42,506 bases of DNA from Gammaproteobacteria bacterium (GTDB lineage: Bacteria > Pseudomonadota > Gammaproteobacteria > Pseudomonadales > Pseudohongiellaceae): the NCBI GenBank assembly GCA_030427065.1, contig JAUHWU010000014.1, positions 1 through 42,506 of the forward strand, read 5' to 3'. Positions 3,532 through 37,746 of the stretch are shown piece after piece. The notes beneath the pieces are model-generated. The model was not told the DNA's origin. It worked only from the letters and a program-made list of their open reading frames with translations, and did no database searches. The position numbers and the translations under genes are program-made. Numbering within the stretch: the first letter of the stretch is position 1; every line of letters begins with the position of its first letter.

Positions 3532-4857
3532 TTAAATCGTTACGGTGCCGTTACTGTCGCCAAAGCTGTCCTGCTCGATATCCAGTTTGTGAAGCATTGC
3601 CAGCAGCAAGTTGGACATTTGAGTTTTTTCAGACATCACTATATGACGGTTTCCCTCCAGTTTTCCGGACGCACCGCCTGCCAAAATGACAGGCAGGGGA
3701 TCATGGTTGTGGGAGTTTCCATCACTCATACCACTGCCATAGAGAATCATGGAGTGATCAAGCAGATTACCGTTTCCATCTGGCGTTGATCTGAGCTTAT
3801 CCAGAAAATAGCCCAGCAGACTGACATGATAGCGATTCAACTGGGCAAATCTGGCCTTGTTGTCTTCATTGTTGGAATGATGGGAAAGTGTATGAAAGCC
3901 ATCCCGCACGCCACTGGCTGGATAGATTGCGCCGCTTAGTTCCTTGGCCATAAGAAATGTCGAAACTCTGGAGATTTCTGTCTGCCAGGCCAGTACCTGC
4001 AAGTCGTACATCAGCTTGATATGCTCCTCCACATCTGCTGGTATGCCATTGGGTTTGTCTGGAACGGCAACATCGTCCGACACCTTTTCGCCCGCCTGAA
4101 CAATTCGTCTCTCAATTTCCCGGATATCAGTCAGGTATTGCTCAAGTCTCACTTTGTCACTGGCCGGCAGTGTCTTGTCCAAAGAGGATAATTGTTCGGA
4201 AACGGCATCAAGCAGACTCAGGGACTGTTTTCTTCTGGCTTCCCGTTGCGCGGGTGTGGCGCCGTCCCCAAATAATTGTTCAAAAACTACCTGCGGGTTG
4301 TTCTGCATAGGCAGTGGCGAAAGTGAAGACTGCCATGAAATCGTATTGCGATAAGCACAACTCAATCCTTCGCCACAGCTAATAGTCGCTTCCTCTATGG
4401 TGAGTTCAAGGGAGGGCAGTGGGGTATCCCGATTCAATTCCCTGGCTATGATCTGATCAATAGTCACTCCAAGTTCAGGGGTTGCACCACGCAGGGGTTT
4501 TGCGCCACTGAGAAAACTGGCGGCTGATCTGTTGTGATTTGCTGTCGCGCCACCGGGTCCATAGGCCAGCGGCAGAGTCAGATTGCTCACCACATTGATC
4601 TGATCCCTGAACGACTCCAGAGGCTTGAGAATTTCAGAAAACTCAAAATTCTTCCCTTCTTTTAGCGGAGTCCACTTTGACATGGTGGCCCCATGAGGAA
4701 AATAAATCGCCCCGAAACGGGTTTTTGACATACTTTCCTGTGCGTTAAGTGTTCCGGCGGGAATCATGGATTCCAGTAATGGCAACGCCAACATGGAACC
4801 TGCCCCTCTGAGCATGGTTCTGCGTGATAGATGTTTTTTACTGATAAAGTTGACCAT
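3532..4857 (-). CDS. DUF1552 protein, Tat-exported (module A)
   Basis: This 441-residue protein belongs to the DUF1552 family, of unknown function. The start at 4857 is set by GGAGG six bases upstream and by its match to the paralogue at 30849 (KKHLSRR near the N-terminus in both). The N-terminus is a twin-arginine signal (SRRTMLRGAG, then a hydrophobic run to about residue 40), so it is probably exported folded. The C-terminal half has the conserved YGSGMSDGNSHNHDPLP block and AGGASGKLEGNRH. The Asp/His-rich block resembles metal sites of alkaline-phosphatase-like folds, as in the related DUF1501 family; this is inference. It is last in a three-gene minus-strand operon after ankyrin and DUF1592 genes, 55 bases downstream of the latter. 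DUF1552 genes commonly accompany DUF1592 genes, which suggests a joint function. Confidence 0.85.
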   Translation of the reverse strand: MVNFISKKHLSRRTMLRGAGSMLALPLLESMIPAGTLNAQESMSKTRFGAIYFPHGATMSKWTPLKEGKNFEFSEILKPLESFRDQINVVSNLTLPLAYGPGGATANHNRSAASFLSGAKPLRGATPELGVTIDQIIARELNRDTPLPSLELTIEEATISCGEGLSCAYRNTISWQSSLSPLPMQNNPQVVFEQLFGDGATPAQREARRKQSLSLLDAVSEQLSSLDKTLPASDKVRLEQYLTDIREIERRIVQAGEKVSDDVAVPDKPNGIPADVEEHIKLMYDLQVLAWQTEISRVSTFLMAKELSGAIYPASGVRDGFHTLSHHSNNEDNKARFAQLNRYHVSLLGYFLDKLRSTPDGNGNLLDHSMILYGSGMSDGNSHNHDPLPVILAGGASGKLEGNRHIVMSEKTQMSNLLLAMLHKLDIEQDSFGDSNGTVTI

Positions 4858-4912
4858 GATTTGCCTCCGGCAACTGAATATCATTCTGTTGGCTATTAAC
4901 TATTAACGTTTA

Positions 4913-7198
4913 CTATTGACTGTCTGCTACATGCACGCCATCTGATTTTACTCTGTACAGGAACTGATCACTTGTCACGATACCTTTGACAATGGACGCG
5001 AATCTGTAATCCTCATTTTCGGCTTCCCTGACGATTGAGCGTACAGCCGGCATATCAAAGTACTCAAGTTCACGCCCCAATGCATAGGTCATTAATTTTT
5101 CGGTTAAGGTTTCAATAAATAATTCTGAATAGTTCATCAGTGAATTTCTGAGATCTGATGGGCCATTAAGATCCGTGCCATCCAGAAGTGTTCCTGACGG
5201 ATTTACTTTCGATTCACCATCATATTCACGCCAGGCGCCTACGAGATCAAAATTCTCCAGGGCAAACCCAACAGGGTCAATAACACTGTGACAGGAACTG
5301 CATACCGGATCCTGACGGTGCTGTTCAAGCCTTTCCCTGACTGAAGTGGTAATAACAGAGGAGCCATCACCATCCAGATTGGTTTCGACCCCGGGTGGAG
5401 GAGCTGGTACCGGGGCGCTCAGCAGGTTTTCCAGAATCCAGCTGCCTCTGATTACCGGTGAGGTACGACTGGCGGTTGAAGTCACGGTCAGAATACTGCC
5501 ATGGCCAAGTAAGCCTCTTCTGGGGCTATCTTCCGGCAAGCTGACTTTTCTGAAGGCCGAGCCTTTGACGCCGGAAATGCCGTAATGCTCGGCAAGGCGG
5601 GAATTGAGATAGGTATATTGGGCATCCAGAATAGTCGTTACCGGTAAGTCTTCCTCTATGATACTTGCTACCAACAACCGGGTTTCCCTGATAAAGGCCA
5701 TGCGCAGATTGTCATTAAAGTTTCCTTCTTCCGGCGTAACACTTTCCATGTCACGCAGAAAAAGCCACTGCCCGGCAAAGTTTTCTACTAGCGCAAGGGA
5801 CTTTTCGTTGGCAAGCATCCTGTTGACCTGGGCTCGCAGGATTGCCGGTTCATGCAAACGCTCAGCAAGCGCCAGCTCTATCAATTCCTCGTCCGGGATA
5901 CTGCTCCAAAGAAAAAATGATAGCCTGGAGGCCAATTCAAGATCGCTGACCGGGTATCTTTCACCGGGTAGCAAATCTTGCGGCTCTTCCTCAAAGCGCA
6001 CAAGTAACTGCGGGTCAACCAATATACGTGAGATGGCCTGCTGGATGCCGCTTTCAAAGCCGCCTTCTTCATAACCCTGCCGGTAAAAGACCATGATCGA
6101 TTCAACCTGGTTTTGTGTCGCGGGTCGACGAAATGCCTTGCTGGCAAGATTTTCTACAATGGTTTTGGCGCAGGAAATTTCTTCATCGTTAGTGGCAGGG
6201 TAGCAGGTAAATATTTTTTGCCGGCTAGGTGTGATGCCAGGACCTGTGGCATTGAAAGGGCCGGTAATCTCGATTCGATTTACGCTTCCCTCAATACTGG
6301 ATTCTTTGTAAATATTGTTAACACCGGTAGATTTTCGATTATCAATAATGGCGGCAGTGATTGTATGGGGCCCTGCTGTTATTGGAATTCTGCTGATGCT
6401 GTTGTCGGTCAGCTCTACTGGTTGCCCGTCGATGGAGAAATCCAGCGTCGAGGCTAATTGCCTGCCACTGCCACTATTAAAGCTGAATAATCTGGCGCCA
6501 ACATTGATGTCGTACTGCGCATCAAGAGGAAAGTTGTGCGTTATCTTTATGCCGCCCCTGGTACCAAGAGGCATTCCTTCAATATGTCGGTCCTGCATGT
6601 AGTCAGGTGGTGGCAAATACGCTGTGGAGGCTTCTGAGGCGGTCATGTCGCCTACAGACCACCGGCTTATTTTCATGGCGGCAGATGTATAGGCCTGAAC
6701 CAGGGCAGGGGAGAAGCCAAGAGACGCTGCAATGTTGTCGAAACCTTCACTGGAGTTATCCCTTGGCAGTAAAGTGGATACATCAATTTCAAGGGCCAAT
6801 AGATCCCTGATGACATTGCCGTATTCCTGCCGATTCAATCTGTGTACACCCGGGGATGCCGGGATTGTCTCTATAGTCTGATCAAGCTTGTAGGCAATGG
6901 TTTTGGCAAAATCCTGCATGATGTTATTGCCCGGGCGTTCTTCACCGGCCGGCGGCATCATGCCAATGCGGACTTTCCTGATCATTAATTCCCATATTTC
7001 AGGATCATTTTCTACATGGCTGAAATCCAGAACACCCATGTCCAGACTGCCAGCCCAATCTTCAAAGTTGTGGCATTTGACACAATACTGGTCGATAAAA
7101 TCAGGCACATCCTGAGCCAAGACAGAAGTTGGCAGTAGTGATGCCAGCGATGTCATCAATGCGGTAGCGATTAAAGAATATTTTATGGATTTCTGCAT
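4913..7198 (-). CDS. DUF1592-family exported diheme protein (module A)
   Basis: A 761-residue exported protein with the multi-domain layout DUF1587/DUF1595/DUF1592/DUF1588/DUF1585, named from memory of the families. It has a signal peptide (1-29), then a cytochrome-c-like segment C39-V-K-C42-H43 with a candidate Met ligand in MPPAGE (about 80-85). A DUF1587 block follows (RLNRQEYGNVIRDLL, 120-134), then a beta-rich insert around GTRGGIKITHNFPLDAQY, the DUF1595/1592 helical core (ASRLSFFLWSSIPDEEL), the RRGLLGHGSILT motif, a second C633-S-S-C636-H637 within DUF1588, and a DUF1585 end (LMTYALGRELE). It is presumably a periplasmic redox protein; the reaction is unknown. Its ATG directly abuts the ankyrin stop (TAAATG), so translation is probably coupled. 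It is paralogous to 28511-30835. Confidence 0.88.
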   Translation of the reverse strand: MQKSIKYSLIATALMTSLASLLPTSVLAQDVPDFIDQYCVKCHNFEDWAGSLDMGVLDFSHVENDPEIWELMIRKVRIGMMPPAGEERPGNNIMQDFAKTIAYKLDQTIETIPASPGVHRLNRQEYGNVIRDLLALEIDVSTLLPRDNSSEGFDNIAASLGFSPALVQAYTSAAMKISRWSVGDMTASEASTAYLPPPDYMQDRHIEGMPLGTRGGIKITHNFPLDAQYDINVGARLFSFNSGSGRQLASTLDFSIDGQPVELTDNSISRIPITAGPHTITAAIIDNRKSTGVNNIYKESSIEGSVNRIEITGPFNATGPGITPSRQKIFTCYPATNDEEISCAKTIVENLASKAFRRPATQNQVESIMVFYRQGYEEGGFESGIQQAISRILVDPQLLVRFEEEPQDLLPGERYPVSDLELASRLSFFLWSSIPDEELIELALAERLHEPAILRAQVNRMLANEKSLALVENFAGQWLFLRDMESVTPEEGNFNDNLRMAFIRETRLLVASIIEEDLPVTTILDAQYTYLNSRLAEHYGISGVKGSAFRKVSLPEDSPRRGLLGHGSILTVTSTASRTSPVIRGSWILENLLSAPVPAPPPGVETNLDGDGSSVITTSVRERLEQHRQDPVCSSCHSVIDPVGFALENFDLVGAWREYDGESKVNPSGTLLDGTDLNGPSDLRNSLMNYSELFIETLTEKLMTYALGRELEYFDMPAVRSIVREAENEDYRFASIVKGIVTSDQFLYRVKSDGVHVADSQ

Positions 7199-8752
7199 TT
7201 ATTGTACCGACATATTTCTTTCTTCAAGAAGTTGAGTAATGAGAGCCATGGATTCAGGCTTTTCTTCCGCCGGATGGGTCGCTAAAAATACACCTTTGGC
7301 CCAGTCGAGAGGGCTTCTGCCTTCATTATCCTTGATATCCAGCCTTGCCCCATTCTCAACTAAAAATTCAATAATGTCATTGGACCCTCTGTTGGCAGCA
7401 CCATGTATAGCCGCCAGACCCATAGAATTCGCATGATTAACATCCATTCCGAGTTCAAAGCACAATTTTACTGCGGCCAGCAAATTTTCTGGCGACTCTG
7501 TCCAGGTCTGGGAAACCACCCAGTTGATACCGGCAGCAGCCATCAAGGCATTGGTTCCTTCAAACGTTGTAATATGAGGGTCCGCGTTATTCTCAAGCAG
7601 TAGTTCCAGAACCGCCATATCGCCAGCTCTGGCTGCTCGAATAAATGGAGTCTGTCCGGTAAAATCTACCCACTCAAGGGTGCCTGTAATGGATAGCAGA
7701 TGGTGGCGGATTGGTGGCGATTCACTTGTTCGCACATTGACGTCCGCACCTTGCTCAATAAGTAGTTTTATCAGGTCTAACAGCTCATTCCGATTACTGA
7801 CAAAATTATTAAACAGGTCATTGTGAATGTATAGATTCCTTACGTTTATGGCTTCCCACAATGGCGATCTGCCATACCAGTCTTGCTGGTTAAGGTCGGC
7901 CCCCTGCACAATAAGCAATTTGGCGGTTTCAACCTGGTTATTCTCCACCGCCATCAATAAAGGGCTTATGTCATTGGCGTCGGAGAGGTGAATATCAGCT
8001 CCTCGCTGCAGTAGCAGGTCAACGATATCCGTAAAGCCATGCCGGGCCGCATAAAGTAGTGGAGTCATTCCTCCGGGTATTGGTTCGCGTCTACCGCGAT
8101 CAGCAGGCGTTCCACCGCGTATAATTCCGATCCCGAAACCGAATCCACGCTGTGAATTGGGTTCCACCCATTTCGGTATTTCGCCAATATCAGTTCTGGC
8201 ATTGGCGTCAGCACCCTGGGATAAGAGGTAATCCACAATATTTTCATGTCCGGCCCTGGCAGCAAACATAAGTGCAGTTTGACCAAAATGCTCATCAGTT
8301 CTGTCAACGCTGGCCCCCGACTCAATCAATGCCCTGACATTGGCTAGCTCACCCGATTGTGCAGCCAGCATCAAGACACTTTGCCGGGCATTGTCCAGTG
8401 TCTCAGGGTCTGCACCGGCTTCAAGCAAGAGTTTCGCCATCACTGTGCTGCCTTTTTCTATGGCCAACGCCAGGGGAGTCACTCCATAGCGGGTTTTAAG
8501 ATCAGGGTTGGCATCATTGGCCAATAGATTAACCAGAAGGTCAAGATTGCCAGCTTCAACGCTCCAGTGTATTGCCGAGGTACCGAACTGGCCTGGTTCG
8601 TCGGGGTTTGCCCCCTGGTCCAGCAATTGCCTGACAAGTACGGCATCTCCTCTCATTGCTGCATCGGCCAAATTGCCCGCATCCTGAGCCCACGCTGTAG
8701 AGCTGAGACAGAAGAATAAAGCAATCAGTCTGGTAAATTTGATATAGAACAT
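7199..8752 (-). CDS. Exported ankyrin-repeat protein (module A)
   Basis: A 517-residue protein from the ATG at 8752, chosen because it begins a clean signal peptide (MFYIKFTRLIALFFCLSS, then TAWAQ); an upstream in-frame extension has no such signal. About eleven ankyrin repeats follow, with typical units such as GVTPLALAIEKGSTVMAKLL. Three inserts break the array: a Gly/Arg-rich loop (IIRGGTPADRGRREPIPGG), ESPPIRHHLLSITGTLEWVD, and AAGINWVVSQTW. All three recur in the paralogue at 32152, so they are family features. Ankyrin repeats usually bind partner proteins; Pseudomonas AnkB is a known periplasmic example, needed for KatB catalase activity. A scaffold or protective role for the neighbouring heme protein is inference. 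It is the first gene of the operon. No strong ribosome-binding site precedes the chosen start. Confidence 0.85.
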   Translation of the reverse strand: MFYIKFTRLIALFFCLSSTAWAQDAGNLADAAMRGDAVLVRQLLDQGANPDEPGQFGTSAIHWSVEAGNLDLLVNLLANDANPDLKTRYGVTPLALAIEKGSTVMAKLLLEAGADPETLDNARQSVLMLAAQSGELANVRALIESGASVDRTDEHFGQTALMFAARAGHENIVDYLLSQGADANARTDIGEIPKWVEPNSQRGFGFGIGIIRGGTPADRGRREPIPGGMTPLLYAARHGFTDIVDLLLQRGADIHLSDANDISPLLMAVENNQVETAKLLIVQGADLNQQDWYGRSPLWEAINVRNLYIHNDLFNNFVSNRNELLDLIKLLIEQGADVNVRTSESPPIRHHLLSITGTLEWVDFTGQTPFIRAARAGDMAVLELLLENNADPHITTFEGTNALMAAAGINWVVSQTWTESPENLLAAVKLCFELGMDVNHANSMGLAAIHGAANRGSNDIIEFLVENGARLDIKDNEGRSPLDWAKGVFLATHPAEEKPESMALITQLLEERNMSVQ

Positions 8753-9362
8753 TGAGTAGTGCGTATCCCCAGGAATTTTTATAGTCTTTTTAAAGGACTT
8801 ATAACCGGATAAAGTATTAAATTCAACTGTATGAATGTAATCAAGGATTAAACACAAAAATCACAATTTATGCTTAATTCCAGTAATAAAGTAATATTTT
8901 TGGTTATATAAAAATGCTTATTCAATAAAGGCAGAAAATCTTACAGCGCTGGTATTCAAATATTTTCAGGCCCATTCTATTTATTGTTTTTATTCCTTGA
9001 ACTCTATATCACCTGTTTCAATCAATCAATTTTATCTTCAGATTCTAGTTTCACCGGGAATATCGTCTGTGGGTCAAAAAAAACTCGACACTATATTTTG
9101 CTTCGTGCTAAAAATGAAATGATTAGTTCATAAAAAAGACTAATTTTAAATAAGGGTGAGTTTTGTAGACGCTCATTTGCAGTAAAAACAATAAGTAAAA
9201 CAATAAGTAAAACCGAAATAGAGCAATAAAAACAAGCTGTGAAGGATCATGCGGCAACTAATTCAGCCTGCCAGCCTGAACCCGTCAAATCTGAAAGTAT
9301 GAATGCTTACATATTTGATAACTCAGTAAAAAATAAAAAGTCACAAAAGGGGGAAGCAAATT
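8753..9362. other. AT-rich divergent intergenic region (module A / TonB-receptor remnant)
   Basis: About 610 bases, strongly AT-rich compared with the genes around it, with no credible ORF. It lies between the ankyrin operon (leftward) and the receptor pseudogene (rightward), so it probably holds both promoters. It includes the tandem 12-bp repeat at 9185-9213. GGGGGAAG just before 9363 is the receptor's ribosome-binding site. I could not assign -35/-10 boxes reliably. Confidence 0.6.
9185..9213. repeat. Tandem 12-bp direct repeat
   Basis: The unit AAAACAATAAGT occurs twice head to tail (9185-9196, 9197-9208), followed by AAAAC. A near copy (GTAAAACAATAA) is found about 130 bases upstream of module B, near 28379. 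It could be a binding site or simple AT-rich drift. Confidence 0.6.
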
Positions 9363-9947
9363 ATGTCCAAAAAACTCACTATTCCTAAACGTGCAATGGC
9401 ACTGGCTATTGCATCAAGTCTGACGGCAGTACCCACATTTCTTTTCGCACAACAAGGCGAGCTTGAAGAGATAACAGTCACAGGATCCCGAACTTGAACA
9501 ACTGATGGCATGGCGACACCAACTCCGGTGACCAGTGGATCCACTCTCGAGCTAATGAATTTCGAACCCGGTGGCAACGTTGCATTTCGCCGTCCCGAAC
9601 TCACAGCCAATGCAACGCTCAGATATAGTGTTGGCCCATGGTCTGCGACCTGGCAGCAGCGTTATATCAGTGACGCTATCGTTAACCTGAACTGGGTTGA
9701 AGGGGTTGATGTTGACATTAATACCGTTCCCACCTATTCATTCACCAACCTGAATTTCCGCTATGACGGTGATTCCATGTTGCAGGGTGGAGAATGGTCA
9801 GCGTCGTTTGCCATCAATAATGCCTTTAACAAAAACCCGCCCATTATCCCTGGCGCCTTTAACCGGGTTGGCTCACAAACCAACTCGGGTGTCGGCTATG
9901 ATGAGTTTGGACGGCGTTATCAGCTGACTTTGGAAATGAGCTTCTAA
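9363..9947 (+). pseudogene. TonB-dependent receptor remnant (internal deletion plus in-frame stop)
   Basis: The reading frame encodes a signal peptide, then a TonB-box-like EEITVTGSRT, then an in-frame TGA (9495-9497). It continues as TTDGMATPTPVTS, the expected start of the plug domain, and then jumps directly to outer-membrane barrel sequence (FRRPELTANATLRYSVG to the end). The last residues, RYQLTLEMSF, are a typical C-terminal beta strand ending in Phe. The whole frame is about 194 codons, whereas such receptors run 700-1000 residues, so most of the plug and barrel is gone. The ribosome-binding site (GGGGGAAG) and terminator survive. The frame is intact apart from the TGA, so the deletion kept frame. 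A functional mini-protein from 9510 is very unlikely. It was presumably once the importer serving module A. Confidence 0.88.
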
Positions 9948-10559: not shown

Positions 10560-10729
10560 GGTATTGAGCCTGGATAATTTGTTTAACGATAAGTTTTGAA
10601 ATAATGAAATTGAAAAAAAGAATGTGTTAGTTGAAAGTGTTTATAATCTACATATACGGTATCTATACTACCAGACTGCAAAATTGTTTAAAGCATTGAA
10701 TAACGATGCTTGTCAATAGAGGTGTTAAC

Positions 10730-11788
10730 ATGAAAAATAATCCCTGCTCAATTCCAACCTTTTCCCGATTAAGTCGACGAGGTTTTTTGTCCCTCGGTAC
10801 GGCAGCCGGACTATGCTCACTCCCTTTCCCCAGCATTTTTGCGCAAACCTCATCAACAGGCATCAAGTTAAATAAACTGCATTGTTTTGAGATCAAGGTT
10901 GCGGATGTTGAACGCACCATAGATTTCTATCAGGGACTTCTGGGTATGAATATCATGTCAACCTTTGCCGGGCGTACCTGTCTTCAGGTGGGAGAAAGCA
11001 ACCAGTTTATGGCGGTCAGACAGATCATGCAGGGCGAAATGCCGGCGATCACCAAGCTGGGATACAGCGTACAGGATTTTGATCTTGTTACTCAACACGA
11101 AGCGCTTGTTTCGGCGGGCTTTACAGAGATACAGGCGCCAGATGTATCCACACCAGGCATTGAAAATGCCATGAGTGTCTGGGTTGCTGACAGGCAGGGA
11201 ACACCGGAGCTCCATTTTGCCGATGCCAATGGTGTCATCGTGCAGCTGGTCGATGATTCATACTGTGGTGGCAGTGGGCCGCTGGGTAATATCTGCGAAA
11301 CGGGTGAGCCTGCACCCTCGGGAGTCTTTGATTTAAACGAAATTAATCACTTCACCGCCTTTGTGAATGACGGCGCTGGCGCCAATACCTATTACCAGCA
11401 GGCTTTTGATCTCAAGGTTCAGGCCTACCAGGGACCAGGTTCACCGGTAACGGGCATTGGCGACGGCCATCAATTTGTCATGTATGCGGGGCCATTTCCT
11501 GGCCAGGGACAGGCTCCTGCCAATATTCATCATGCCAGTTTTAATATTCATGATTTTGATGAAGCCGGGATGCTCGAGAAATTAACCCAATACGGCCTAA
11601 GCGCTCGTGGTGATGGTCAAATCGGACCATTAATGCATTATGTAAGCCGACGCATGCCGGAACGCGGTGGTGTTGAAGGTGGCACCCCTGAAGTCTATTT
11701 TACCGATCCGGATGGCATTTTGATGCAGATGCAGGACGTATCCTACTGTGGTGGCGGGGGTTATCTGGGCAATGAATGCCTGTTGTAA
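10730..11788 (+). CDS. Tat-exported protein with two VOC (glyoxalase/dioxygenase-like) domains
   Basis: A 352-residue protein. The start at ATG 10730 is supported by AGAGGTG about seven bases upstream. A twin-arginine signal (SRRGFLSLGTAAG) and hydrophobic stretch run to about residue 40. Two VOC domains follow: about 45-180 (LHCFEIKVADVERTIDFYQGL) and about 200-340 (NHFTAFVNDGAGANTYYQQA). Each starts with the usual His, but the Glu expected in the last strand reads Gln (VIVQLVD and ILMQMQD), so the classic metal triad may be altered. Each domain ends with the same motif, SYCGG-x-G-x-LGN-x-C (C179/C189 and C340/C350). VOC proteins include glyoxalases, extradiol dioxygenases and resistance proteins; Tat export suggests folding with a cofactor before export. 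It is divergent from the HxlR regulator. Confidence 0.85.
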   Translation: MKNNPCSIPTFSRLSRRGFLSLGTAAGLCSLPFPSIFAQTSSTGIKLNKLHCFEIKVADVERTIDFYQGLLGMNIMSTFAGRTCLQVGESNQFMAVRQIMQGEMPAITKLGYSVQDFDLVTQHEALVSAGFTEIQAPDVSTPGIENAMSVWVADRQGTPELHFADANGVIVQLVDDSYCGGSGPLGNICETGEPAPSGVFDLNEINHFTAFVNDGAGANTYYQQAFDLKVQAYQGPGSPVTGIGDGHQFVMYAGPFPGQGQAPANIHHASFNIHDFDEAGMLEKLTQYGLSARGDGQIGPLMHYVSRRMPERGGVEGGTPEVYFTDPDGILMQMQDVSYCGGGGYLGNECLL

Positions 11789-15506: not shown

Positions 15507-16454
15507 TTATTCACTGGTGTCCAGCAAGCCCCTGGCTTCAAGCCATTCATAAAAGCGCACAATCCAGTCATCCACTGGAAGGTCTTGCTTGCGCATACCA
15601 AAGCCGGCACTGACCTGATCATAAATATGGATTTCTGCGGGTTTACCTGCTGATTTCCAGGCTCCAAACAGGGCCAGACAGCCATTAGTGACATTAAAAT
15701 GGTTATTGCCGACAGCAATAAATAAGGGGGGTGCCTGTTGGGGAACGACAACATCCTGTAGGGAAGGTCCGTAAAGTGAAGCAAGAAAATTTGGCATGCC
15801 TGAAGGACTTTCAGCAATCGTTGCACCGATGACTACTCCCCCTCCAGCGGAAAAGCCCATCAGGCCTACCCGGTTGGGGTCAATGCCCCAATCATTCGCT
15901 CGTTCGCGCACCAGGTTCAATGCTTGACGAGCATCTGCAATCCCCATTTCCAGTACCTCCCTGAGTGCTGGATTGTCGGGTTCCGGGTTGGCATTGCCAT
16001 TGCGGATTGTCAGTTCCTGGCGCGGCCTCGGGTTAACTGATGGTTCTGGTGCTGGTGCATTCGGGTCAGTTTGCAGGGTTCGGTATTTCAGGACAAAAGC
16101 TGCAATACCCCGGTTATTGAGCCATCGTGCTACTTTCGATCCTTCGTTATCCATTCCCAATACCCGCAGGGCCCCGCCTGGCGCAATAATCACAGCGGTG
16201 CCATTGGCACTGGGAGCTTCCGGCAAATATACCGCCAGGGACGGAGCGCTTACATTGGATACAATCCGATCACCATCGGGTGTAGTGTTGACAGTTTCCG
16301 GGAATTGCCAATTATCGGTACCAGGGGCTTGCCCTGGCCACAATAGTAATTCCTCTTGCTGGGCGAAACTTGCGTTGCCTGACAGGCAGGTGAAAAACAC
16401 AAGTACAAGGCCGCCAAGCGAACTGATTTTTCTACTGTATTTTATGTCTTGCAT
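15507..16454 (-). CDS. Exported alpha/beta-hydrolase fold protein, catalytic Asp and His apparently lost
   Basis: A 315-residue protein with a signal peptide (to about 31, ASFAQ) and an alpha/beta-hydrolase fold of the BD-FAE/xylan-esterase-like group. The oxyanion region (VIIAPGGALRVLGMDNEG) and nucleophile elbow (LMGFSAGGG) are intact. At the places where relatives have an Asp (about ...ANDD...) and the GGHGFG His, this protein reads VGNNHFNVTN and YDQVSAGFGMRKQ, so both acid and His seem to be replaced. The alignment is from memory of the family. If real, the protein is a pseudoenzyme or a decaying gene, although the frame is intact. It lies 165 bases downstream of the ceramidase-like gene and 100 bases upstream of the diheme gene, all on the minus strand. 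Binding rather than catalysis is possible. Confidence 0.8.
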   Translation of the reverse strand: MQDIKYSRKISSLGGLVLVFFTCLSGNASFAQQEELLLWPGQAPGTDNWQFPETVNTTPDGDRIVSNVSAPSLAVYLPEAPSANGTAVIIAPGGALRVLGMDNEGSKVARWLNNRGIAAFVLKYRTLQTDPNAPAPEPSVNPRPRQELTIRNGNANPEPDNPALREVLEMGIADARQALNLVRERANDWGIDPNRVGLMGFSAGGGVVIGATIAESPSGMPNFLASLYGPSLQDVVVPQQAPPLFIAVGNNHFNVTNGCLALFGAWKSAGKPAEIHIYDQVSAGFGMRKQDLPVDDWIVRFYEWLEARGLLDTSE

Positions 16455-16619
16455 TTACAGCCACTGTCTTTGGTAATGATCATCAAAGAGTCTGGTTTTG
16501 TCCGAATAAATCTGTAGCCCGAGACTCCCTTGATTTCTATTATGGCATGCCTCTGCATAGATGCATTGAGCGTTTTCGGGTGACCATTCTAAAATTCTTT
16601 ATTATTACTGAAAGAGCAT

Positions 16620-17966: not shown

Positions 17967-17980
17967 GAAACTGTCCTCAA

Positions 17981-20335: not shown

Positions 20336-20349
20336 CCGGAGCTTTTTCC

Positions 20350-23062: not shown

Positions 23063-23086
23063 AGTCTTGAGTCTCACTGATTTTTA

Positions 23087-28510: not shown

Positions 28511-30835
28511 ATGAATTTATTGATTAAAATTTCACGGTTTATCCACTGGCAGGCTTTATCTGCGCTGGTATTTGCCAGTGCTTTTTCCCTGGCACAGGAA
28601 AACGTAGAACCGGACTGGGAAATCCTCGAGACCTATTGCCAGGGTTGCCACAACTTTGAAGACTATTCCGGCAGTATCGCCTTTGATGTGCTATCAAGGG
28701 ATGAACTGGCGCAGGATGATGAGATATGGGAAAAAGCCTTGCGCAGGATTCGCACCGGGTTGATGCCGCCTGCAGGCGAGCCAAGACCCGGTCGATCTGA
28801 ATTTGCAGGTTTTGTACACAGCCTGGAAAACAGGCTGGACAGTCAGCAGGCTGAACACCCCAACCCCGGCCATGAAGGCCTGGCCAGACTTAACCGCGCC
28901 GAGTATATCAACGTCATCCGCGACCTGCTGGGCTTTGATGCCTTGGACATTGTCACAACCTTGCTGCCAGCTGATGAAACTGATGAGGGGTTCGACAACC
29001 TGTCTGAATCACTTAGTGTTTCTCCCACATTGATAGAAGCCTATGTTGGCGTTGCCATGCGCATTAGTCGCACAGCGGTTGGTGATCGCGCCATGATTCC
29101 TGTACAGGTGCAATACCCCGCACCTTCCGGTAGTCAGACCGGTCACCGTGAAGGTCTGCCGCTGGGGACTCGTGGTGGCATGCTGGTGACGCACAATTTC
29201 CCTCTGGATGCTGAATATGAAATCCGCGTATCGGGGCAGGGTGCCGGTGGTATTTTTAACAATCAGGCGTTTTGCAGCGGGCCCAACATTGTCCTGACCC
29301 TCAACGACATCCCGCTGGAAGTAGAGGATCCAGGTCGCTTCCAGATGTGGATACCCGCCGGCCCGCAAACCATCGGTGCCGCCCTGGTGGATGACAAACG
29401 CTGTGTGGGCGTAAATGAATTCTACGATGACTATTCTCTGGCAGGTGCCATTCGGCAAATCGAGATTAACGGTCCCTTTGACATATCTGGTGCCGGTGAT
29501 ACGCCGAGTCGTCGTGCCATTTTCTCCTGCTACCCGCAGGCAGCCAGGGAAGAAGACGCCTGTGCACGGGAAATTCTCCAGGACCTGACGTCACGCGCGT
29601 TTCGTGAACCGGTGGATGCCCATGACAGGAAGATCGATACCCTGATGCAGTTCTATGCCATGGGCAAGGGGGAAGGGGATTTTGAAACCGGCATTCAGTA
29701 TGCCATTTCACGTTTGCTGATAGATCCACAGTTTCTCTACCAGATTGAAGTCCAGCCTGATGATGTTGAGCCGGGTGACATCTACCACATCAGTCAGCTT
29801 GAACTGGCCACCCGCCTGTCATTTTTTCTGTGGAGCAGTATTCCTGACGCGGAACTGGTAGCCCTTGCTGTCGATGGCCAACTGAACAAGCCTGCTGTCC
29901 TGGAAGCACAGGTACGGCGCATGCTGGCCGATGAGCGTGCCAAGGCACTGGTAGAAAACTTTGCCGCCCAGTGGCTGATGCTGCGGGAACTGGATGCAGC
30001 CCTGCCCCAGGATCGCGCCTTTAGTGACAGCCTGAAACAGGCCTTTCGCGACGAAACCCAATTGCTTTTCCTTGATATGGTCCAGGAAGACCGGGGTTTG
30101 CTGCATTTACTGAATGCTGATTACACCTGGCTTAATGAAGAGTTGGCTGGGCATTACGGCATCAGTGATATCCGTGGTGACTATATGCGCAAGGTCACTC
30201 TGCCTGCCAGTAGTCCACGTCGCGGCCTGCTGGGCCATGGCAGTATTCTCACCGCCACTTCGGTTGCCAATCGGACGTCACCGGTTATTCGCGGTGTCTG
30301 GATCGTGGAAAACATTCTTGGTGCGCCGGCACCGGTACCTCCGCCCGGCGTGGAAACCGACCTGACCCAGGAAGAGGGGGCGGAAGGTAAGGTGCCCAAC
30401 ACCCTGCGTGAACGACTGGAACTGCATCGCGCCAATCCCACTTGCGCTGCCTGCCACCAGATCATGGATCCAATGGGTCTGGCCCTGGAAAATTTTGACC
30501 TCATCGGTCGCTGGCGCGAAACAGATGAAGGACAACCAATAAACACCAGTTCACAACTGATTGACGGAACACCCATCAATAGTCCGGTAGATATGCGCAA
30601 TGCGCTGTTAACACGGGGTGATACGATTGCCACGTCTGTTACTGAAAAATTGCTGACCTATGCCCTGGGGCGCCTGCTGGAGCCTGATGATATGCCAGCC
30701 GTCCGTAAAATAATCAATGATACTGCTGCGCTGGATTATCGTTTTTCCGATGTCATTTTCGGCATCGTTGAAAGTCTGCCGTTCCAGTACAAGGTCGCCA
30801 TAGAAAATCCGCAACAACCAATAGCCAATCGGTAG
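28511..30835 (+). CDS. DUF1592-family exported diheme protein (module B)
   Basis: A 774-residue paralogue of the protein at 4913-7198, with the same order of parts: signal peptide (to about 29, FSLAQ), C43-Q-G-C46-H47 with NFEDYSGS, candidate Met ligand in GLMPPAGE (about 85), DUF1587 block RLNRAEYINVIRDLLG, beta insert GTRGGMLVTHNFPLDAEY, DUF1595/1592 core ATRLSFFLWSSIPDAEL, RRGLLGHGSILTAT, second heme motif C645-A-A-C648-H649, and a DUF1585 end LLTYALGRLLE. A Cys pair in the beta insert (NQAFCSGPN, DKRCVGVN) is absent from copy A. It is probably a periplasmic c-type redox enzyme; the reaction is unknown. It is first gene of a five-gene operon, 13 bases before the DUF1552 start. Confidence 0.88.
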   Translation: MNLLIKISRFIHWQALSALVFASAFSLAQENVEPDWEILETYCQGCHNFEDYSGSIAFDVLSRDELAQDDEIWEKALRRIRTGLMPPAGEPRPGRSEFAGFVHSLENRLDSQQAEHPNPGHEGLARLNRAEYINVIRDLLGFDALDIVTTLLPADETDEGFDNLSESLSVSPTLIEAYVGVAMRISRTAVGDRAMIPVQVQYPAPSGSQTGHREGLPLGTRGGMLVTHNFPLDAEYEIRVSGQGAGGIFNNQAFCSGPNIVLTLNDIPLEVEDPGRFQMWIPAGPQTIGAALVDDKRCVGVNEFYDDYSLAGAIRQIEINGPFDISGAGDTPSRRAIFSCYPQAAREEDACAREILQDLTSRAFREPVDAHDRKIDTLMQFYAMGKGEGDFETGIQYAISRLLIDPQFLYQIEVQPDDVEPGDIYHISQLELATRLSFFLWSSIPDAELVALAVDGQLNKPAVLEAQVRRMLADERAKALVENFAAQWLMLRELDAALPQDRAFSDSLKQAFRDETQLLFLDMVQEDRGLLHLLNADYTWLNEELAGHYGISDIRGDYMRKVTLPASSPRRGLLGHGSILTATSVANRTSPVIRGVWIVENILGAPAPVPPPGVETDLTQEEGAEGKVPNTLRERLELHRANPTCAACHQIMDPMGLALENFDLIGRWRETDEGQPINTSSQLIDGTPINSPVDMRNALLTRGDTIATSVTEKLLTYALGRLLEPDDMPAVRKIINDTAALDYRFSDVIFGIVESLPFQYKVAIENPQQPIANR

Positions 30836-30848
30836 GGAGCCAGTGGCA

Positions 30849-32132
30849 ATGAAATTTTTGACCAAGAAACATCTGTCACGTCGTCTGGTCCTGCGTGGCG
30901 CTGGAACTGCGCTGGCGTTGCCGCTGCTGGAATCGATGCTGCCGGCGGCATCACTGGCAGCCGAGCGCGCTGGTACACCGCAAGCGCGCCTGGCGTGTAT
31001 TTATATTGCCCATGGCGCGGTGATGGATCGCTGGATGCCATCCACCGACGGGAAAGGATTTGAATTTACCCCGACGCTGAAATCCCTCGAGCCATTCCGG
31101 GACAGGCTCAATGTGGTCAGCGACATGCGCCTGCCCAATGCCTATGGCGATGATGCCTCGGCCGGCGCCAACCATGCGCGTTCATCTTCCGTATGGTTGA
31201 CCAGCCACAAACCGGGCACGGGTCCTTCGCCAACCTCGCTGGATCAGGTGGCAGCGCAGTATATCGGCCAGGATACACCGATGCCCTCGCTGGAGCTTTC
31301 CCTTGAAGAAGGCAGTTCGATTTCCTATCGCACACCGGAAACGCCGCTGCCCATGGAGCTGAATCCGCAGGTGGTATTTGAACGTCTGTTCGGTGACGGC
31401 AGCACAGAGCAAGAACGCGCCCAACGCCAGGCGCTGAAGATGAGCCTGCTTGACTCTGTTACCGGCGATGTCGCTTCCCTGCAACGTAAACTGCCAGGTG
31501 CTGACCGCCAGCGTCTGGAGCGCTACCTGGAAGATGTCAGGGAAATCGAACGCCGTCTGCAGCTTGTAGCAGCGTCGCCTGCCAATGATCTTGAGGTCCC
31601 TGATAAACCGGTCGGTGTGCCGAGCAGTTTTACCGAACAGTCCAAATTGATGTTTGACCTGATGGCATTGGCCTGGCAGGCAGAAATCACTCGCGTGTCC
31701 ACCTTGATGGTGGCTCGTGAAATCAGTAACCGCGTCTACAGTGAAAGCGGAGTCAATGATCCTTTTCACAACCTTTCCCATCATTCCGAAGTGCAGGCAA
31801 ACAAGGACAAGCTGGCGATCCTGAATGCCTTCCATACCAAAACCACCATGGCCTATTTCCTGGAAAAACTGGCGAATACCCCTGATGGAGATGGGTCACT
31901 GCTGGATCATTCCGTTGTGCTGTATGGCAGCGGCATGAGTAATTCCAATCAGCATGACCATGATCCGCTCCCTTTGCTACTGGCAGGCGGGGCCTCAGGG
32001 CGACTGGAAGGCGGTCGCCATATCCGCGCCGGTCTTGGAACACCGATAGCCAACCTGCATAACGCCATTCTGGATAAACTGAATGTGCCGGTGGATGACT
32101 TTGGTGACAGTACTGGTATTTTGAATGTCTGA
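30849..32132 (+). CDS. DUF1552 protein, Tat-exported (module B)
   Basis: A 427-residue DUF1552 protein. ATG 30849 has AGGGAG nine bases upstream; GTG 30843 would be too close to it. The twin-arginine segment SRRLVLRGAGTALALPLLES matches copy A closely. Conserved blocks include NVVSDMRLPNAYG, ANHARSSSVWL, PQVVFERLFGDG, YLEDVREIERRL and YGSGMSNSNQHDHDPLP near the C-terminus. The segment equivalent to ISCGEGLSCAYRNT in copy A is shortened here to SSISYRTPE, losing both cysteines. The function is unknown; Asp/His clustering hints at a metal-dependent hydrolase-like fold. Its last codons overlap an upstream in-frame ATG of the ankyrin gene, whose likely real start is 19 bases downstream. Confidence 0.85.
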   Translation: MKFLTKKHLSRRLVLRGAGTALALPLLESMLPAASLAAERAGTPQARLACIYIAHGAVMDRWMPSTDGKGFEFTPTLKSLEPFRDRLNVVSDMRLPNAYGDDASAGANHARSSSVWLTSHKPGTGPSPTSLDQVAAQYIGQDTPMPSLELSLEEGSSISYRTPETPLPMELNPQVVFERLFGDGSTEQERAQRQALKMSLLDSVTGDVASLQRKLPGADRQRLERYLEDVREIERRLQLVAASPANDLEVPDKPVGVPSSFTEQSKLMFDLMALAWQAEITRVSTLMVAREISNRVYSESGVNDPFHNLSHHSEVQANKDKLAILNAFHTKTTMAYFLEKLANTPDGDGSLLDHSVVLYGSGMSNSNQHDHDPLPLLLAGGASGRLEGGRHIRAGLGTPIANLHNAILDKLNVPVDDFGDSTGILNV

Positions 32133-32151
32133 TTCTGGTCTGGAACAAGCC

Positions 32152-33765
32152 ATGAGAAATTTCTGCGCAGTATTGATTGTGATGGTTGTCTTGCTCTGCA
32201 TGCCACTGCATGCTGCACAGATCAGCACTGGGTTTCTGGACAATCAAATCGTTGATACCCGTCTGGCTGAAGCGGCCATGGCGAGGGATATGACTACGGT
32301 GAGGGCATTGCTGCGGGAGCAGGGTGCTGATGTCAACGCCCTGGGACCTTTTGAAACACCGGCACTGCATTGGGTGGTGCGAGTGGAAGATGTGGAGACC
32401 GCATCACTGTTACTGGAGGCAGGTGCCGACCCTAACCTGGCTAATGCCTACGACCTGCAACCTTTGCACCTGGCTATCGAAAACGGGGATGCCGCAATGG
32501 TAGCTCTGTTGCTGGTTGCCGGTGCTGATCCCAATATTCCCGATCGTGCCGGCGAAAACTCATTGTTCCTGGCTGCACGCAGTGGTTCGCCTGAAATCGT
32601 GCAACTGATACTGGATTTCGGCGCTGACGCGCAGCAGCGCGAGCCCAATTTTAACCAGACCCCCCTGATGGTAGCGGTGCGTTCCGGAGAAGCAGCCGTG
32701 GTATCCCAGCTGCTCGACACCGGGGTGGATGTGGATGCACAAACACTGGCGGGGGAAGTTCCCCGTATGCGCCTGCCCAGTGAAAATGCCGGTTCAAAAG
32801 GGGTGGGAATCAATCGTGGTGGTATTCCGGAACGCGGCGAACGTGCACCGATAGGGGGGGCCAAGACGGCCTTGCTGTATGCCACTCGCCAGGGTGACCT
32901 GCAACTGACGCGCCTGCTGGTGGAAGCCGGTGCAGACCTTGAGCTGGCTGATGCCAATGGGGTAACGCCTCTTATCAATGCCATCGTCAATGGCAGTATA
33001 GTCAGCCGCGGCGGTCCGCCTACAGGGCATATAGCCACGGCACGCTACCTGATTAGCCAGGGAGCGAATGTCAACGCCAGTGACTGGTATGGTGAAACGC
33101 CCCTGTGGTCTGCCGTTATGTTGCGTAACCTGAATGTTAACGGTGCTACCCGGGACAACAGGGTTGACCGCGCAGCGGCGCTTGAACTCATCAGGGACCT
33201 TATTCAGGCCGGAGTAGACGTCAATGCCCGCACAAAGGAAAGCCCGCCCACGCAACGCTTTATTACACGCATTGGCGATCTGTCATGGGTGGACTTTACC
33301 GGCCAGACCCCATTCCTGCGGGCGGCATTCTCAGGTGATGTTACTGTCATGAAATTGCTGGTGGATAACGGCGCTGATCCCAATATCGGGACCTTTGCCG
33401 GCACCACGCCCTTGATGGCGGCGGCTGGCATCAACTGGGTGGTCAACCAGACCTGGGACGAAGGCAGTGATGCCCTGCTGGAAGCGGTGAAATACGCCCA
33501 TCAACTTGGTAACGATGTAAATGCCCGTAACTCCATGGGCTTGTCCGCTGTGCATGGTGCCGCCAATCGCGGTTCCAATGACATTATCCGATATCTGGCT
33601 GCCAATGGTGCAGAACTTGATATCGAGGACAAGGAAGGTCGTACGCCTGTAACCTGGGCCCATGGTGTGTTTCTTGCCACCCATCCACCGGTGGACAAGC
33701 CGGAAACGGCAGCATTGATTGAGGCCTTGCTTGAGCAGCGACAGCTTGCCCAAGGCACCGAATAG
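32152..33765 (+). CDS. Exported ankyrin-repeat protein (module B)
   Basis: A 537-residue protein from ATG 32152, where a signal peptide begins (MRNFCAVLIVMVVLLCMPLH, then AAQ). An ATG at 32125 overlapping the DUF1552 stop would add nine polar residues. About eleven ankyrin repeats follow (for example DLQPLHLAIENGDAAMVALL). The family inserts seen in copy A are conserved: INRGGIPERGERAPIGG, ESPPTQRFITRIGDLSWVD, AAGINWVVNQTW and the end GVFLATHPPVDKPE. Copy B places the ankyrin gene after DUF1552, whereas in copy A it comes before DUF1592, so the three genes stay together despite reordering. It is likely a periplasmic partner-binding scaffold; the specific target is unknown. Confidence 0.86.
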   Translation: MRNFCAVLIVMVVLLCMPLHAAQISTGFLDNQIVDTRLAEAAMARDMTTVRALLREQGADVNALGPFETPALHWVVRVEDVETASLLLEAGADPNLANAYDLQPLHLAIENGDAAMVALLLVAGADPNIPDRAGENSLFLAARSGSPEIVQLILDFGADAQQREPNFNQTPLMVAVRSGEAAVVSQLLDTGVDVDAQTLAGEVPRMRLPSENAGSKGVGINRGGIPERGERAPIGGAKTALLYATRQGDLQLTRLLVEAGADLELADANGVTPLINAIVNGSIVSRGGPPTGHIATARYLISQGANVNASDWYGETPLWSAVMLRNLNVNGATRDNRVDRAAALELIRDLIQAGVDVNARTKESPPTQRFITRIGDLSWVDFTGQTPFLRAAFSGDVTVMKLLVDNGADPNIGTFAGTTPLMAAAGINWVVNQTWDEGSDALLEAVKYAHQLGNDVNARNSMGLSAVHGAANRGSNDIIRYLAANGAELDIEDKEGRTPVTWAHGVFLATHPPVDKPETAALIEALLEQRQLAQGTE

Positions 33766-33799
33766 TAATCATTTTAGTGAAACCCAAAGGACAGTATTA

Positions 33800-34714
33800 A
33801 TGAAAAACACAAAGCCCATTGAGCAGAATTTTTCCTGGCAAGTATCGCGCCGTCGCATGCTGGGTGCCATGGGCTCACTGGCAGTGCTACCGGTCGTTAC
33901 ACAGGCGCAAGGGGCAAGTGTTTTACCTTTAAATACCCCTGGCCTGGACCATCTCGATATTATCGTGCCAGACGTAGCAGCATCGGCGACTTTTTACATG
34001 CAGTTATTCAACACCACTTTGCATGTTCAGCCTCTGGGTGAAGGTGTGCGCTATTTCATTCTGCTTGGCGAGTTGGATGAAAGCCGAGAAGTGGGTTATG
34101 TCGCCATAGGCGAATCACGGGGACGGGGCACCTATATTGGTCACTTCTGTACTACCGTGGTTGACTGGCGTCGTGATAGTGGTGCTATTTTTTCTGCCAT
34201 GGGTGAGGAAATTGAAGCACATGGCTTCGGCACGTTTCCGGGCAGTACCGGCTTTGGTGGTATTTTCAGTGATCCCGATGGTATTGAAATACAGTTCCTG
34301 CCTGCGCCTGACACCCTGGTCACGGCCGCGGTTCCCTCTGATCTGGTGCCATCGCGCCAGGGTCTGATAACCCCTTATGGTGTCGATCATGTGCACTTGT
34401 ATGTGTCGGATATGGAACGTGCATCTGAGTATTACACTATCCTGTATGGCGCTGATGCGCGCCGACTGGTCAATGGCCTGGTGACTTTTGATTTTCCCGC
34501 TTCAGATACGCGAATCATTCTGGAGCAGGTCGATTATGTCTATGGCGAAAATCCCGGGATAGCGCACTTTGGCATCAAGGTGGCGCCGTTTGACTCAGAG
34601 GTACTGGCGAAGCGTTTGACGGAACTGGGCGCGCAGGTGCTGGCTAGTGAAGAGTCTGGCGTCTTCCGCTTTAAAGATCTTGACGGCATCACGATAGAAT
34701 TGGTGCAGTCCTGA
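33800..34714 (+). CDS. Tat-exported protein with two VOC domains (module B)
   Basis: A 304-residue protein from ATG 33800 (AAAGG nine bases upstream); the longer in-frame start lies inside the ankyrin gene. A twin-arginine motif (SRRRMLGAMGSL) is followed by a hydrophobic segment to VTQAQG. Two VOC domains follow: about 45-170 (GLDHLDIIVPDVAASATFYM) and about 195-304 (GVDHVHLYVSDMERASEYY). Each has the first-strand His and a last-strand acidic residue (DGIEIQFLP, DGITIELVQS), so domain metal sites look more complete than in the VOC protein at 10730. It lacks that protein's Cys motif. The reaction could be dioxygenase, glyoxalase or binding only. It is fourth in the operon, 34 bases after the ankyrin stop. 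Confidence 0.83.
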   Translation: MKNTKPIEQNFSWQVSRRRMLGAMGSLAVLPVVTQAQGASVLPLNTPGLDHLDIIVPDVAASATFYMQLFNTTLHVQPLGEGVRYFILLGELDESREVGYVAIGESRGRGTYIGHFCTTVVDWRRDSGAIFSAMGEEIEAHGFGTFPGSTGFGGIFSDPDGIEIQFLPAPDTLVTAAVPSDLVPSRQGLITPYGVDHVHLYVSDMERASEYYTILYGADARRLVNGLVTFDFPASDTRIILEQVDYVYGENPGIAHFGIKVAPFDSEVLAKRLTELGAQVLASEESGVFRFKDLDGITIELVQS

Positions 34715-37738: not shown

Positions 37739-37746
37739 ATTTCCCC

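What the first reader, a model, noticed from the sequence alone, without database searches (positions are those of the whole stretch)
3532..8752. Duplicated exported ankyrin/DUF1592/DUF1552 module
Three exported gene families occur together twice (3532-8752 minus; 28511-33765 plus) with changed internal order (ankyrin-DUF1592-DUF1552 versus DUF1592-DUF1552-ankyrin). Being kept together despite reordering argues for a functional unit. DUF1592/1552 pairs are known mainly as unknowns in planctomycete- and acidobacteria-type genomes; a dedicated periplasmic ankyrin partner is not something I know as described. A diheme redox enzyme with a Tat-exported partner and a scaffold is the inference.
Basis: partly seen in the sequence, partly recalled or inferred. 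Interest (0 to 1): 0.72.

Follow-up and report, generated by a model that had tools for sequence, protein, structure and literature searches.

The report
Exported ankyrin–diheme cytochrome operon family
Three exported bacterial proteins of unknown function (an ankyrin protein, a two-heme cytochrome and a metal-enzyme-like partner) are inherited as one operon that occurs more than a dozen times in this genome, and a distantly related soil bacterium carries a single copy in which the operon's job could be tested.

Summary
Both trios are real, at the stated coordinates, with export-signal-like N-termini. They are not a local duplication: M1 and M2 are old paralogues (48-50% identical), each closer to genes in other genomes. 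The genome holds 17 DUF1552 and 18 ankyrin-family matches, 15 of the latter within 6 kb of DUF1552, and 13 contiguous trios. In 28 genomes (own included) the two counts track each other (r = 0.99). Among 75 ankyrin-family loci in named genomes, 65 also hold DUF1592 and/or DUF1552; 57 full-length trios show only two orders (ankyrin-1592-1552, 38; 1592-1552-ankyrin, 19). The three trees agree, also within this genome. New here: an alkaline-phosphatase-superfamily fold with conserved histidines for DUF1552; recurrent exported VOC and metallo-β-lactamase-fold neighbours; one copy in Sphingobium sp. SYK-6. Best reading: an exported redox system for organic substrates, in which the metalloprotein meets the substrate, the diheme protein takes electrons, and the ankyrin holds them together. 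The unit is shown; the chemistry is inferred. The 1592-1552 pair was known; the ankyrin-containing operon was not found in the papers searched.

The parts
3532..4884 (-). M1 DUF1552 (PF07586, HXXSHH) protein, 450 aa, Tat-type N-terminus (KKHLSRRTMLRGAG)
   Evidence: fold
4913..7198 (-). M1 DUF1592-type cytochrome (PSD3-PSD5-PSD4-PSCyt3-PSD2), 761 aa, two CxxCH motifs (CVKCH at residue 39, CSSCH at 633), Sec-like N-terminus
7199..8752 (-). M1 exported ankyrin-repeat protein (ATG start at 8752; the ORF opens at 8857 with TTG), directly abutting DUF1592
28511..30835 (+). M2 DUF1592-type diheme cytochrome, 774 aa
30843..32132 (+). M2 DUF1552 protein, 429 aa, Tat-type N-terminus
32125..33765 (+). 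M2 exported ankyrin-repeat protein, start overlapping the DUF1552 stop
33719..34714 (+). M2 likely fourth member: Tat-type exported double-VOC (glyoxalase-fold) protein; the ORF opens at 33719 (TTG), likely ATG at about 33800; homologues sit beside the ankyrin module in 19 of 75 named-genome loci

Best explanation
The trio is a conserved, exported three-protein unit that works on a small organic substrate in the periplasm. SHOWN: the three genes are co-inherited as an operon-like block in Gammaproteobacteria, Alphaproteobacteria and Acidobacteriota (by record title); the ankyrin family has 9 to 28 members in 26 of 30 genomes chosen because they hold it, and one in Sphingobium SYK-6; DUF1592 carries two heme-c motifs; DUF1552 has a Tat-type start and an alkaline-phosphatase-superfamily fold. 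INFERRED: DUF1552's conserved histidines (H64, H117, H331, H335, H336, H392, H414) hold one or two metal ions at or near the superfamily's usual site, in place of its Asp-rich hydrolase site, and this centre acts on the substrate; the diheme DUF1592 protein takes the electrons and passes them to a soluble or membrane cytochrome; the ankyrin solenoid is a dedicated scaffold that pairs each cytochrome with its own metalloprotein. Operon variants add other exported metalloenzyme-like proteins (VOC, metallo-β-lactamase fold) for a further step, which fits paralogues tuned to different substrates, in the manner of polysaccharide-utilisation loci.
For: Unit: 120 of 144 ankyrin-family hits lie within 6 kb of DUF1552, and 120 of 141 DUF1552 hits within 6 kb of an ankyrin, in 28 genomes; copy numbers r = 0.99 over those 28; 65 of 75 named-genome ankyrin loci also hold DUF1592 and/or DUF1552; 57 full-length trios in only two orders, median gap 1592-1552 18 bp, ankyrin to its neighbour -4 bp; congruent trees, Mantel r 0.89/0.94/0.91 over 57 trios and 0.83/0.84/0.81 for 11 trios inside this genome, 0 of 2000 permutations as high. 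Redox: two CxxCH in 54 of 57; an ankyrin-less relative in Sphingobium herbicidovorans MH has cytochrome c' and cytochrome b561 genes directly after the pair, and SYK-6 has a membrane-protein-like gene with a PSCyt1 heme domain directly after the ankyrin. Fold: VIA Z 17.0 over 237-241 residues to nucleotide pyrophosphatase/phosphodiesterase-type chains; 477 of 996 chains aligned have Z of 8 or more. Catabolic setting: TonB receptor, IclR regulators, thiolase, hydrolase and MFS genes in SYK-6; VOC, flavin monooxygenase and Rieske genes in S. herbicidovorans.
Against: No interaction, activity, metal or electron flow was measured or modelled. The DUF1592 model has no confident PDB match (best Foldseek E 0.022; only a middle jelly-roll, 185-318, matches CBM36/35 at Z 7.8 or less), so no enzyme analogue supports catalysis there. 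Mapping of the histidines to the metal site rests on order and spacing, not on coordinates. DUF1592-1552 pairs occur without ankyrin elsewhere, and in the class sample 4 of 6 genomes with DUF1552 had no ankyrin-family hit, so the ankyrin is not obligatory for the pair. An ankyrin subtype stands apart from both partners beside a small VOC gene without an obvious export signal (L106, L108). Two own-genome ankyrin-DUF1552 pairs lack DUF1592 (L016; L018 at a contig end). Congruent trees within a genome also follow from block duplication without binding.
Confidence: 0.45

Rival explanations
1. The ankyrin is an assembly factor, not a scaffold: it delivers or protects heme for the diheme cytochrome, as periplasmic AnkB of Pseudomonas aeruginosa and Cj1386 of Campylobacter do for catalase.
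For: [quoted passage not shown] here the ankyrin gene directly precedes the diheme gene in 38 of 57 trios; the ankyrin-less pairs looked at in Sphingobium (2), Planctomyces (1) and two related genomes (L123, L124) have one heme motif per DUF1592 gene.
Against: A generic heme chaperone would not need about one copy per DUF1552 gene (r = 0.99). No His, Tyr, Cys or Met of the ankyrin is invariant: the best are M197 54 of 57, M439 51, M163 50 and Y269 50. In 19 of 57 trios it follows DUF1552 instead. Long DUF1592 genes without a visible ankyrin also occur, though at contig ends (L121, L122).
Confidence: 0.25
2. DUF1552 is an ordinary hydrolase of the alkaline-phosphatase superfamily (sulfatase, phosphodiesterase or esterase) and the cytochrome acts on the released product or is only an electron carrier; the operon is an esterase-plus-oxidase pathway.
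For: Fold match to sulfatases and phosphodiesterases; PSCyt genes of Verrucomicrobia often lie near sulfatase genes (PMC5615132 passages); esterase and lipase-type genes fill much of the window between M1 and M2.
Against: The conserved set is rich in histidine, and a C/S-x-P-x-R sulfatase-type signature occurs in only 3 of 57 sequences, at three different places; the profile of 16 DUF1552 proteins matches no solved structure by sequence at E up to 1.
Confidence: 0.2
3. The three genes travel together only because blocks are duplicated and transferred; the proteins do not work together.
For: Congruent trees and close spacing would also follow from block duplication.
Against: Only two arrangements survive across phyla although the ankyrin changed side 2-4 times on the trees; stop-start overlaps are common; accessory genes vary while the core does not.
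Confidence: 0.05

Closest known systems
PSCyt3/PSD (planctomycete-specific cytochrome) gene next to DUF1552, in Planctomycetes and Verrucomicrobia
   Same: Same Pfam domains; a Planctomyces plasmid shows the same 1592-1552 neighbour order. [quoted passage not shown]
   Different: The passages read there name no ankyrin partner; here an exported ankyrin gene is part of the unit, and the module is multiplied in Proteobacteria and Acidobacteriota.
PSCyt2 (DUF1549/DUF1553) plus DUF1501 pair
   Same: Recalled as a parallel arrangement of an exported cytochrome with a Tat-exported partner.
   Different: Different domains; a profile comparison of DUF1552 with five DUF1501 proteins found no significant match, only the Tat signal at probability 3% (inconclusive, shallow alignment).
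AnkB-KatB (Pseudomonas aeruginosa), Cj1386-KatA (Campylobacter jejuni), ank-katE (Leptospira)
   Same: Ankyrin protein dedicated to a heme protein; AnkB is periplasmic by its paper's title (passages and reference list of PMC7567364).
   Different: The partners here are a diheme c-type cytochrome and an AP-fold protein, not catalase.
Alkaline-phosphatase superfamily (sulfatases, nucleotide pyrophosphatases/phosphodiesterases)
   Same: The DUF1552 model shares the fold over residues 49-450.
   Different: Conserved metal-type residues are mainly histidines; function untested.

Membership tests
DUF1552 / HXXSHH (PF07586) | Pfam profile over its gathering score | tested here: met
   288.8 and 286.3 bits against cut-off 30
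DUF1552 / HXXSHH (PF07586) | HxxSHH motif | tested here: met
   H331, H335 and H336 in 57 of 57 and S334 in 56 of 57 trios
PSCyt3/PSD planctomycete-type cytochrome | PSD3, PSD5, PSD4, PSCyt3 and PSD2 domains together | tested here: met
   all five over cut-off in both window copies
PSCyt3/PSD planctomycete-type cytochrome | heme-c motif in PSCyt3 | tested here: met
   C633, C636 and H637 in 57 of 57; a second CxxCH in 54 of 57
Alkaline-phosphatase superfamily | common fold | tested here: met
   model pLDDT 84, pTM 0.80; Foldseek E down to 3.7e-6 though TM-scores are only 0.3-0.5; VIA Z 17.0 over 237-241 residues
Alkaline-phosphatase superfamily | two-metal site with Asp/His ligands and a Ser/Thr/formylglycine nucleophile (recalled) | tested here: inconclusive
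AnkB/Cj1386-type ankyrin heme factors | exported ankyrin protein encoded beside a heme protein | tested here: met
   hydrophobic N-terminal stretch in 54 of 57 ankyrins; in a block with the diheme gene in 57 of 57 trios (by selection)
AnkB/Cj1386-type ankyrin heme factors | heme binding by the ankyrin | tested here: inconclusive
   no invariant His/Tyr/Cys/Met in 57 sequences
AnkB/Cj1386-type ankyrin heme factors | catalase as partner | tested here: not met
   neighbours are DUF1592 and DUF1552
Polysaccharide-utilisation-locus-like logic | repeated operon with a TonB receptor and variable accessory enzymes | tested here: inconclusive
   two TonB-receptor clusters within 4 kb in 8 loci each; accessory VOC in 19 of 75 loci and MBL-fold in 15 loci
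Anti-phage defence | match to a whole defence protein model | tested here: inconclusive
   PADLOC: only partial matches of the two ankyrin proteins (PDC-M72A, Ankyrin, MzaA); none for the other four proteins at E 1e-5

The most novel reading that the evidence does not exclude
A new class of scaffolded periplasmic oxidoreductases: an alkaline-phosphatase-fold protein rebuilt with a His-rich redox metal centre, coupled to a diheme cytochrome and clamped by an ankyrin solenoid, multiplied to about 20 substrate-specific copies per genome in several bacterial lineages, where it would stand beside glycoside-hydrolase loci as a second way of taking apart organic matter.
Probability: 0.2. Interest if true: 0.85.

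Novelty: new variant of a known kind. Interest (0 to 1): 0.6.

Why it matters
Planctomycete-type cytochromes and their neighbours had no known function when PMC5615132 was written (passages), and PMC2754498 (passages) counts 41 of one domain pair in a single genome. This work adds a regular third partner, gives DUF1552 a fold, shows that the unit evolves as one, and points to Sphingobium sp. SYK-6 (one DUF1552 gene; one ankyrin-family gene) as a place where a few gene deletions could settle the question without redundancy.

Tried and rejected
Recent tandem duplication: rejected, M1 and M2 lie in different clades with closer relatives elsewhere. Ankyrins as ordinary ankyrins scattered over the genome: rejected, the family profile finds them beside DUF1552. 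Defence system: PADLOC gives only partial ankyrin matches; NCBIfam Dot/Icm ankyrin-effector models match far below their cut-offs, so no effector claim. DUF1552 as sister of DUF1501: profile comparison not significant, left open. DUF1592 as a known diheme enzyme (RoxA, MauG, CCP type, recalled): no such chain is among the 50 rows shown of each fold search, which does not exclude it. VOC as a ring-cleaving extradiol dioxygenase: H78 and H142 are invariant in 16 of 16 but no Glu passed 85%, so the classical 2-His-1-Glu set (recalled) is not shown. Plasmid search with the M1 ankyrin at E 1e-40: no match, although a diverged trio is on a Novosphingobium plasmid when sought with my profiles (L142, ankyrin 181 bits).

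Rows and limits. The 75 named loci come from 42 assemblies by accession prefix and overlap with the 28 genomes (some handle genomes give identical places), so the counts are not independent. The patterns came from three ankyrins, so it reaches the M1/M2 side of the family best. Of the 10 ankyrin-only loci, seven are at a contig end or on a 3.4-kb contig (L077, L081, L082, L084, L087, L096, L098) and three are not (L041, L049, L076). One search reports 154 ankyrin matches in its genome rows and lists 150; I used 144 and left out six listed low-score rows. The 21 DUF1552 hits without an ankyrin within 6 kb and the 24 lone ankyrins are listed; 20 such stretches were looked at, many ending at a contig end. 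The class-wide ankyrin search scored only the five best candidates per genome (2 of 274 genomes including the own one; DUF1552 6 of 274; in the one other genome with both, G180, the two hits are about 0.3 kb apart). The 57 trios are those with exactly three ORFs of at least 420 (ankyrin), 600 (DUF1592) and 380 aa (DUF1552) among 70 modules with all three; 13 were dropped before the tree test. Mantel permutations ignore tree structure. A stricter Tat pattern matched 45 of the 57 DUF1552 starts; the 12 misses mostly have Pro, Ala or Cys before the invariant RR or a wrongly early start. The 30 genomes were chosen because they hold an ankyrin locus.
Full report
What is there. The six genes are at the stated places and belong to the stated families. 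DUF1552 proteins carry an invariant RR near the start (57 of 57 trios); the ankyrins (54 of 57) and DUF1592 proteins (52 of 57) have a hydrophobic stretch near the start, a crude test for Sec export.

How many. The genome that holds the window (3.42 Mb, 262 contigs) has 17 DUF1552 matches, 19 DUF1592-domain matches, two of them partial, and 18 ankyrin-family matches at E 1e-20, 15 of which lie within 6 kb of a DUF1552 match. Thirteen loci have all three genes contiguous and two more have ankyrin and DUF1552 only. Random placement gave a mean of 1.3 neighbours and never more than 7. The five other genomes of the genus have 12-17 DUF1552 matches, two genomes of a second genus 14 and 19, and the other genera 0-4. 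Over the 28 genomes ankyrin and DUF1552 counts correlate at r = 0.99. In seven of the eight genomes or records (the plasmid record left out) the DUF1552 counts are 1, 1, 18, 29, 19, 23 and 13, against ankyrin counts 1, 1, 18, 28, 24, 22 and 11. Outside the family the module is rare: in an even class sample 2 of 274 genomes had the ankyrin and 6 of 274 DUF1552, the own genome included.

Is it a unit. In 28 genomes, 120 of 144 ankyrin hits are within 6 kb of DUF1552, and 120 of 141 DUF1552 hits within 6 kb of an ankyrin. In 75 loci found with the ankyrin alone among named genomes, 59 hold all three families, 5 ankyrin and DUF1592, 1 ankyrin and DUF1552, 10 ankyrin only, seven of these at contig ends or on a tiny contig. 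The 75 include Gammaproteobacteria, Acidobacteriota and Alphaproteobacteria (Sphingobium sp. SYK-6, S. nicotianae, Hyphomonadaceae) by record title. DUF1592 precedes DUF1552 in every contiguous same-strand module that holds both; L021 has them divergent. The ankyrin gene is either first or last: 38 and 19 of the 57 full-length trios. Gaps are operon-like: median 18 bp between DUF1592 and DUF1552, -4 bp between the ankyrin and its neighbour. The trees of the three families agree (Mantel r 0.89, 0.94, 0.91 for 57 trios), also among 11 trios inside this one genome, where shared species history cannot explain it (0.83, 0.84, 0.81; 0 of 2000 permutations each); the ankyrin changed side 2-4 times on the trees. 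In the DUF1552 tree M1 groups with L030 and L031, M2 with L065, L080 and L051.

What the proteins look like. The DUF1552 model (pLDDT 84) has the alkaline-phosphatase-superfamily fold: sulfatases, LtaS-type and phosphodiesterase chains fill the lists. Conserved residues are His-rich: H117, H331, H335 and H336 in 57 of 57, H64, H392 and H414 in 56, with D143 in 57. By order and spacing H331-x3-H335 resembles the Asp-x3-His pair of the superfamily's first metal site and H64, just after the first strand, the first Asp ligand; this is my inference from recalled ligand sets. A sulfatase-type C/S-x-P-x-R signature occurs in 3 of 57, at different places. The DUF1592 model (pLDDT 86) has no confident PDB match as a whole; a middle jelly-roll (185-318) resembles CBM36/35 modules at Z 7.8 or less, under the level the tool takes seriously. 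Neither family matches a solved structure by sequence at E up to 1. DUF1592 has CxxCH motifs at both ends (54 of 57). The ankyrin has no invariant His, Tyr, Cys or Met.

Neighbours. VOC homologues lie beside the module in 19 of 75 loci, before the ankyrin, after it, between DUF1592 and DUF1552, or after DUF1552; in this genome's module loci only M2 has one. Twin-arginine residues R44 and R45 are conserved in 16 and 15 of 16. A metallo-beta-lactamase-fold gene recurs in 15 loci, 9 of them in the own genome, twice between DUF1552 and the ankyrin (L020, L024). FMN-dependent dehydrogenase genes lie upstream on the other strand in 11 loci of M1 type, but not at M1 itself. In SYK-6 the run is DUF1592, VOC, DUF1552, ankyrin, a membrane-protein-like gene with a PSCyt1 heme domain, a TonB receptor, a hydrolase and an MFS gene, with IclR regulators and a thiolase upstream. 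Ankyrin-less pairs with a short one-heme DUF1592 occur on Sphingobium plasmids, followed by a VOC gene in strain TomTYG73 or by cytochrome c' and cytochrome b561 in S. herbicidovorans MH; a Planctomyces plasmid has DUF1587, DUF1592 and DUF1552 in a row. Novosphingobium sp. KACC 22771 carries a trio with a diverged ankyrin on a plasmid.

How it most likely works. An exported catabolic redox unit: the AP-fold metalloprotein meets the substrate, the diheme protein takes electrons and hands them to a cytochrome, the ankyrin keeps the matched pair together, and VOC or MBL-fold enzymes take a neighbouring step. The cytochrome genes next to an ankyrin-less pair and the heme-bearing membrane protein in SYK-6 are the best evidence for electron flow; the rest is inference. 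The ankyrin as heme factor (AnkB/Cj1386 precedent) is the main rival.

What is known. Searches of the held library: DUF1592 with DUF1552, 0 papers; any of six DUF names, 5 papers; planctomycete-specific cytochrome with ankyrin, 0; planctomycete cytochrome with ankyrin, 1, a dinoflagellate genome paper seen in the listing only; two or more of DUF1501, DUF1553, DUF1549 and planctomycete-specific, 2; DUF1552 or ankyrin with SYK-6, 0 and 0; HXXSHH, 0. PMC5615132 (passages) reports PSCyt genes next to two families of unknown genes in Verrucomicrobia and no function. PMC2754498 (passages) lists a DUF1552 protein in a table of regulated genes of Rhodopirellula baltica. PMC8981238 (passages) shows a cytochrome domain of Cellvibrio Cbp2D, a protein in which a DUF1587 domain is annotated, reducing LPMOs. 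PMC6004670 (one passage) lists a DUF1592 protein with CBM2 in a lignocellulose-degrading community. Subscription papers were not searchable. Hence: known pair, new regular partner and new scale.

Noticed in passing
window about 9360-9944, + strand: Remnant of a TonB-dependent receptor: about 70 N-terminal residues and about 110 C-terminal residues of a roughly 1000-aa receptor lie side by side in one frame, with the middle missing; natural deletion or assembly artefact not decided.
   Followed up: partly
window 10706-11788, + strand: A second Tat-type exported VOC protein, not found by BLAST with the M2 VOC; its one relative in the loci lies beside an ankyrin-only locus at a contig end (L084).
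   Followed up: partly
window 15507-24163: Run of esterase/lipase-type genes (BD-FAE-like, ceramidase-like, two GDSL, Abhydrolase_3, beta-lactamase-fold, putative esterase) between the two modules.
   Followed up: no
window 36773-38253, - strand: Hydroquinone 1,2-dioxygenase large-subunit-like gene (PF18191) with a short overlapping upstream ORF of no Pfam match.
   Followed up: no
window 38290-38676 (-), 42104-42490 (+); similar ORF 36300-36707 (-): Two DUF6152 genes over cut-off and, by eye, a look-alike ORF; in L011 a DUF6152-like part is, by eye, fused to a protein family without Pfam match that lies within 4 kb of module genes in 21 loci.
   Followed up: partly
L106 3161-5324; L108 6313-8465: Ankyrin subtype without DUF1592/DUF1552, followed by a 177-aa VOC protein without an evident export signal; ankyrins followed by a gene of similar length recur in L109, L114 and L115.
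   Followed up: partly
L034, L071, L095 (record CAMDML01): A record titled Klebsiella pneumoniae MAG carries three of these loci, with neighbourhoods like those of gammaproteobacterial MAGs in the same list; the title is probably a mislabel.
   Followed up: no
L107 5109-12939: One DUF1592 gene preceded by three consecutive ankyrin-family genes, with no DUF1552 in the stretch; two ankyrins in a row also follow DUF1552 in L071 and L073.
   Followed up: no
L016 6933-10040 (own genome C218): DUF1552 and ankyrin without a DUF1592 gene upstream, in the middle of a 47-kb contig.
   Followed up: no
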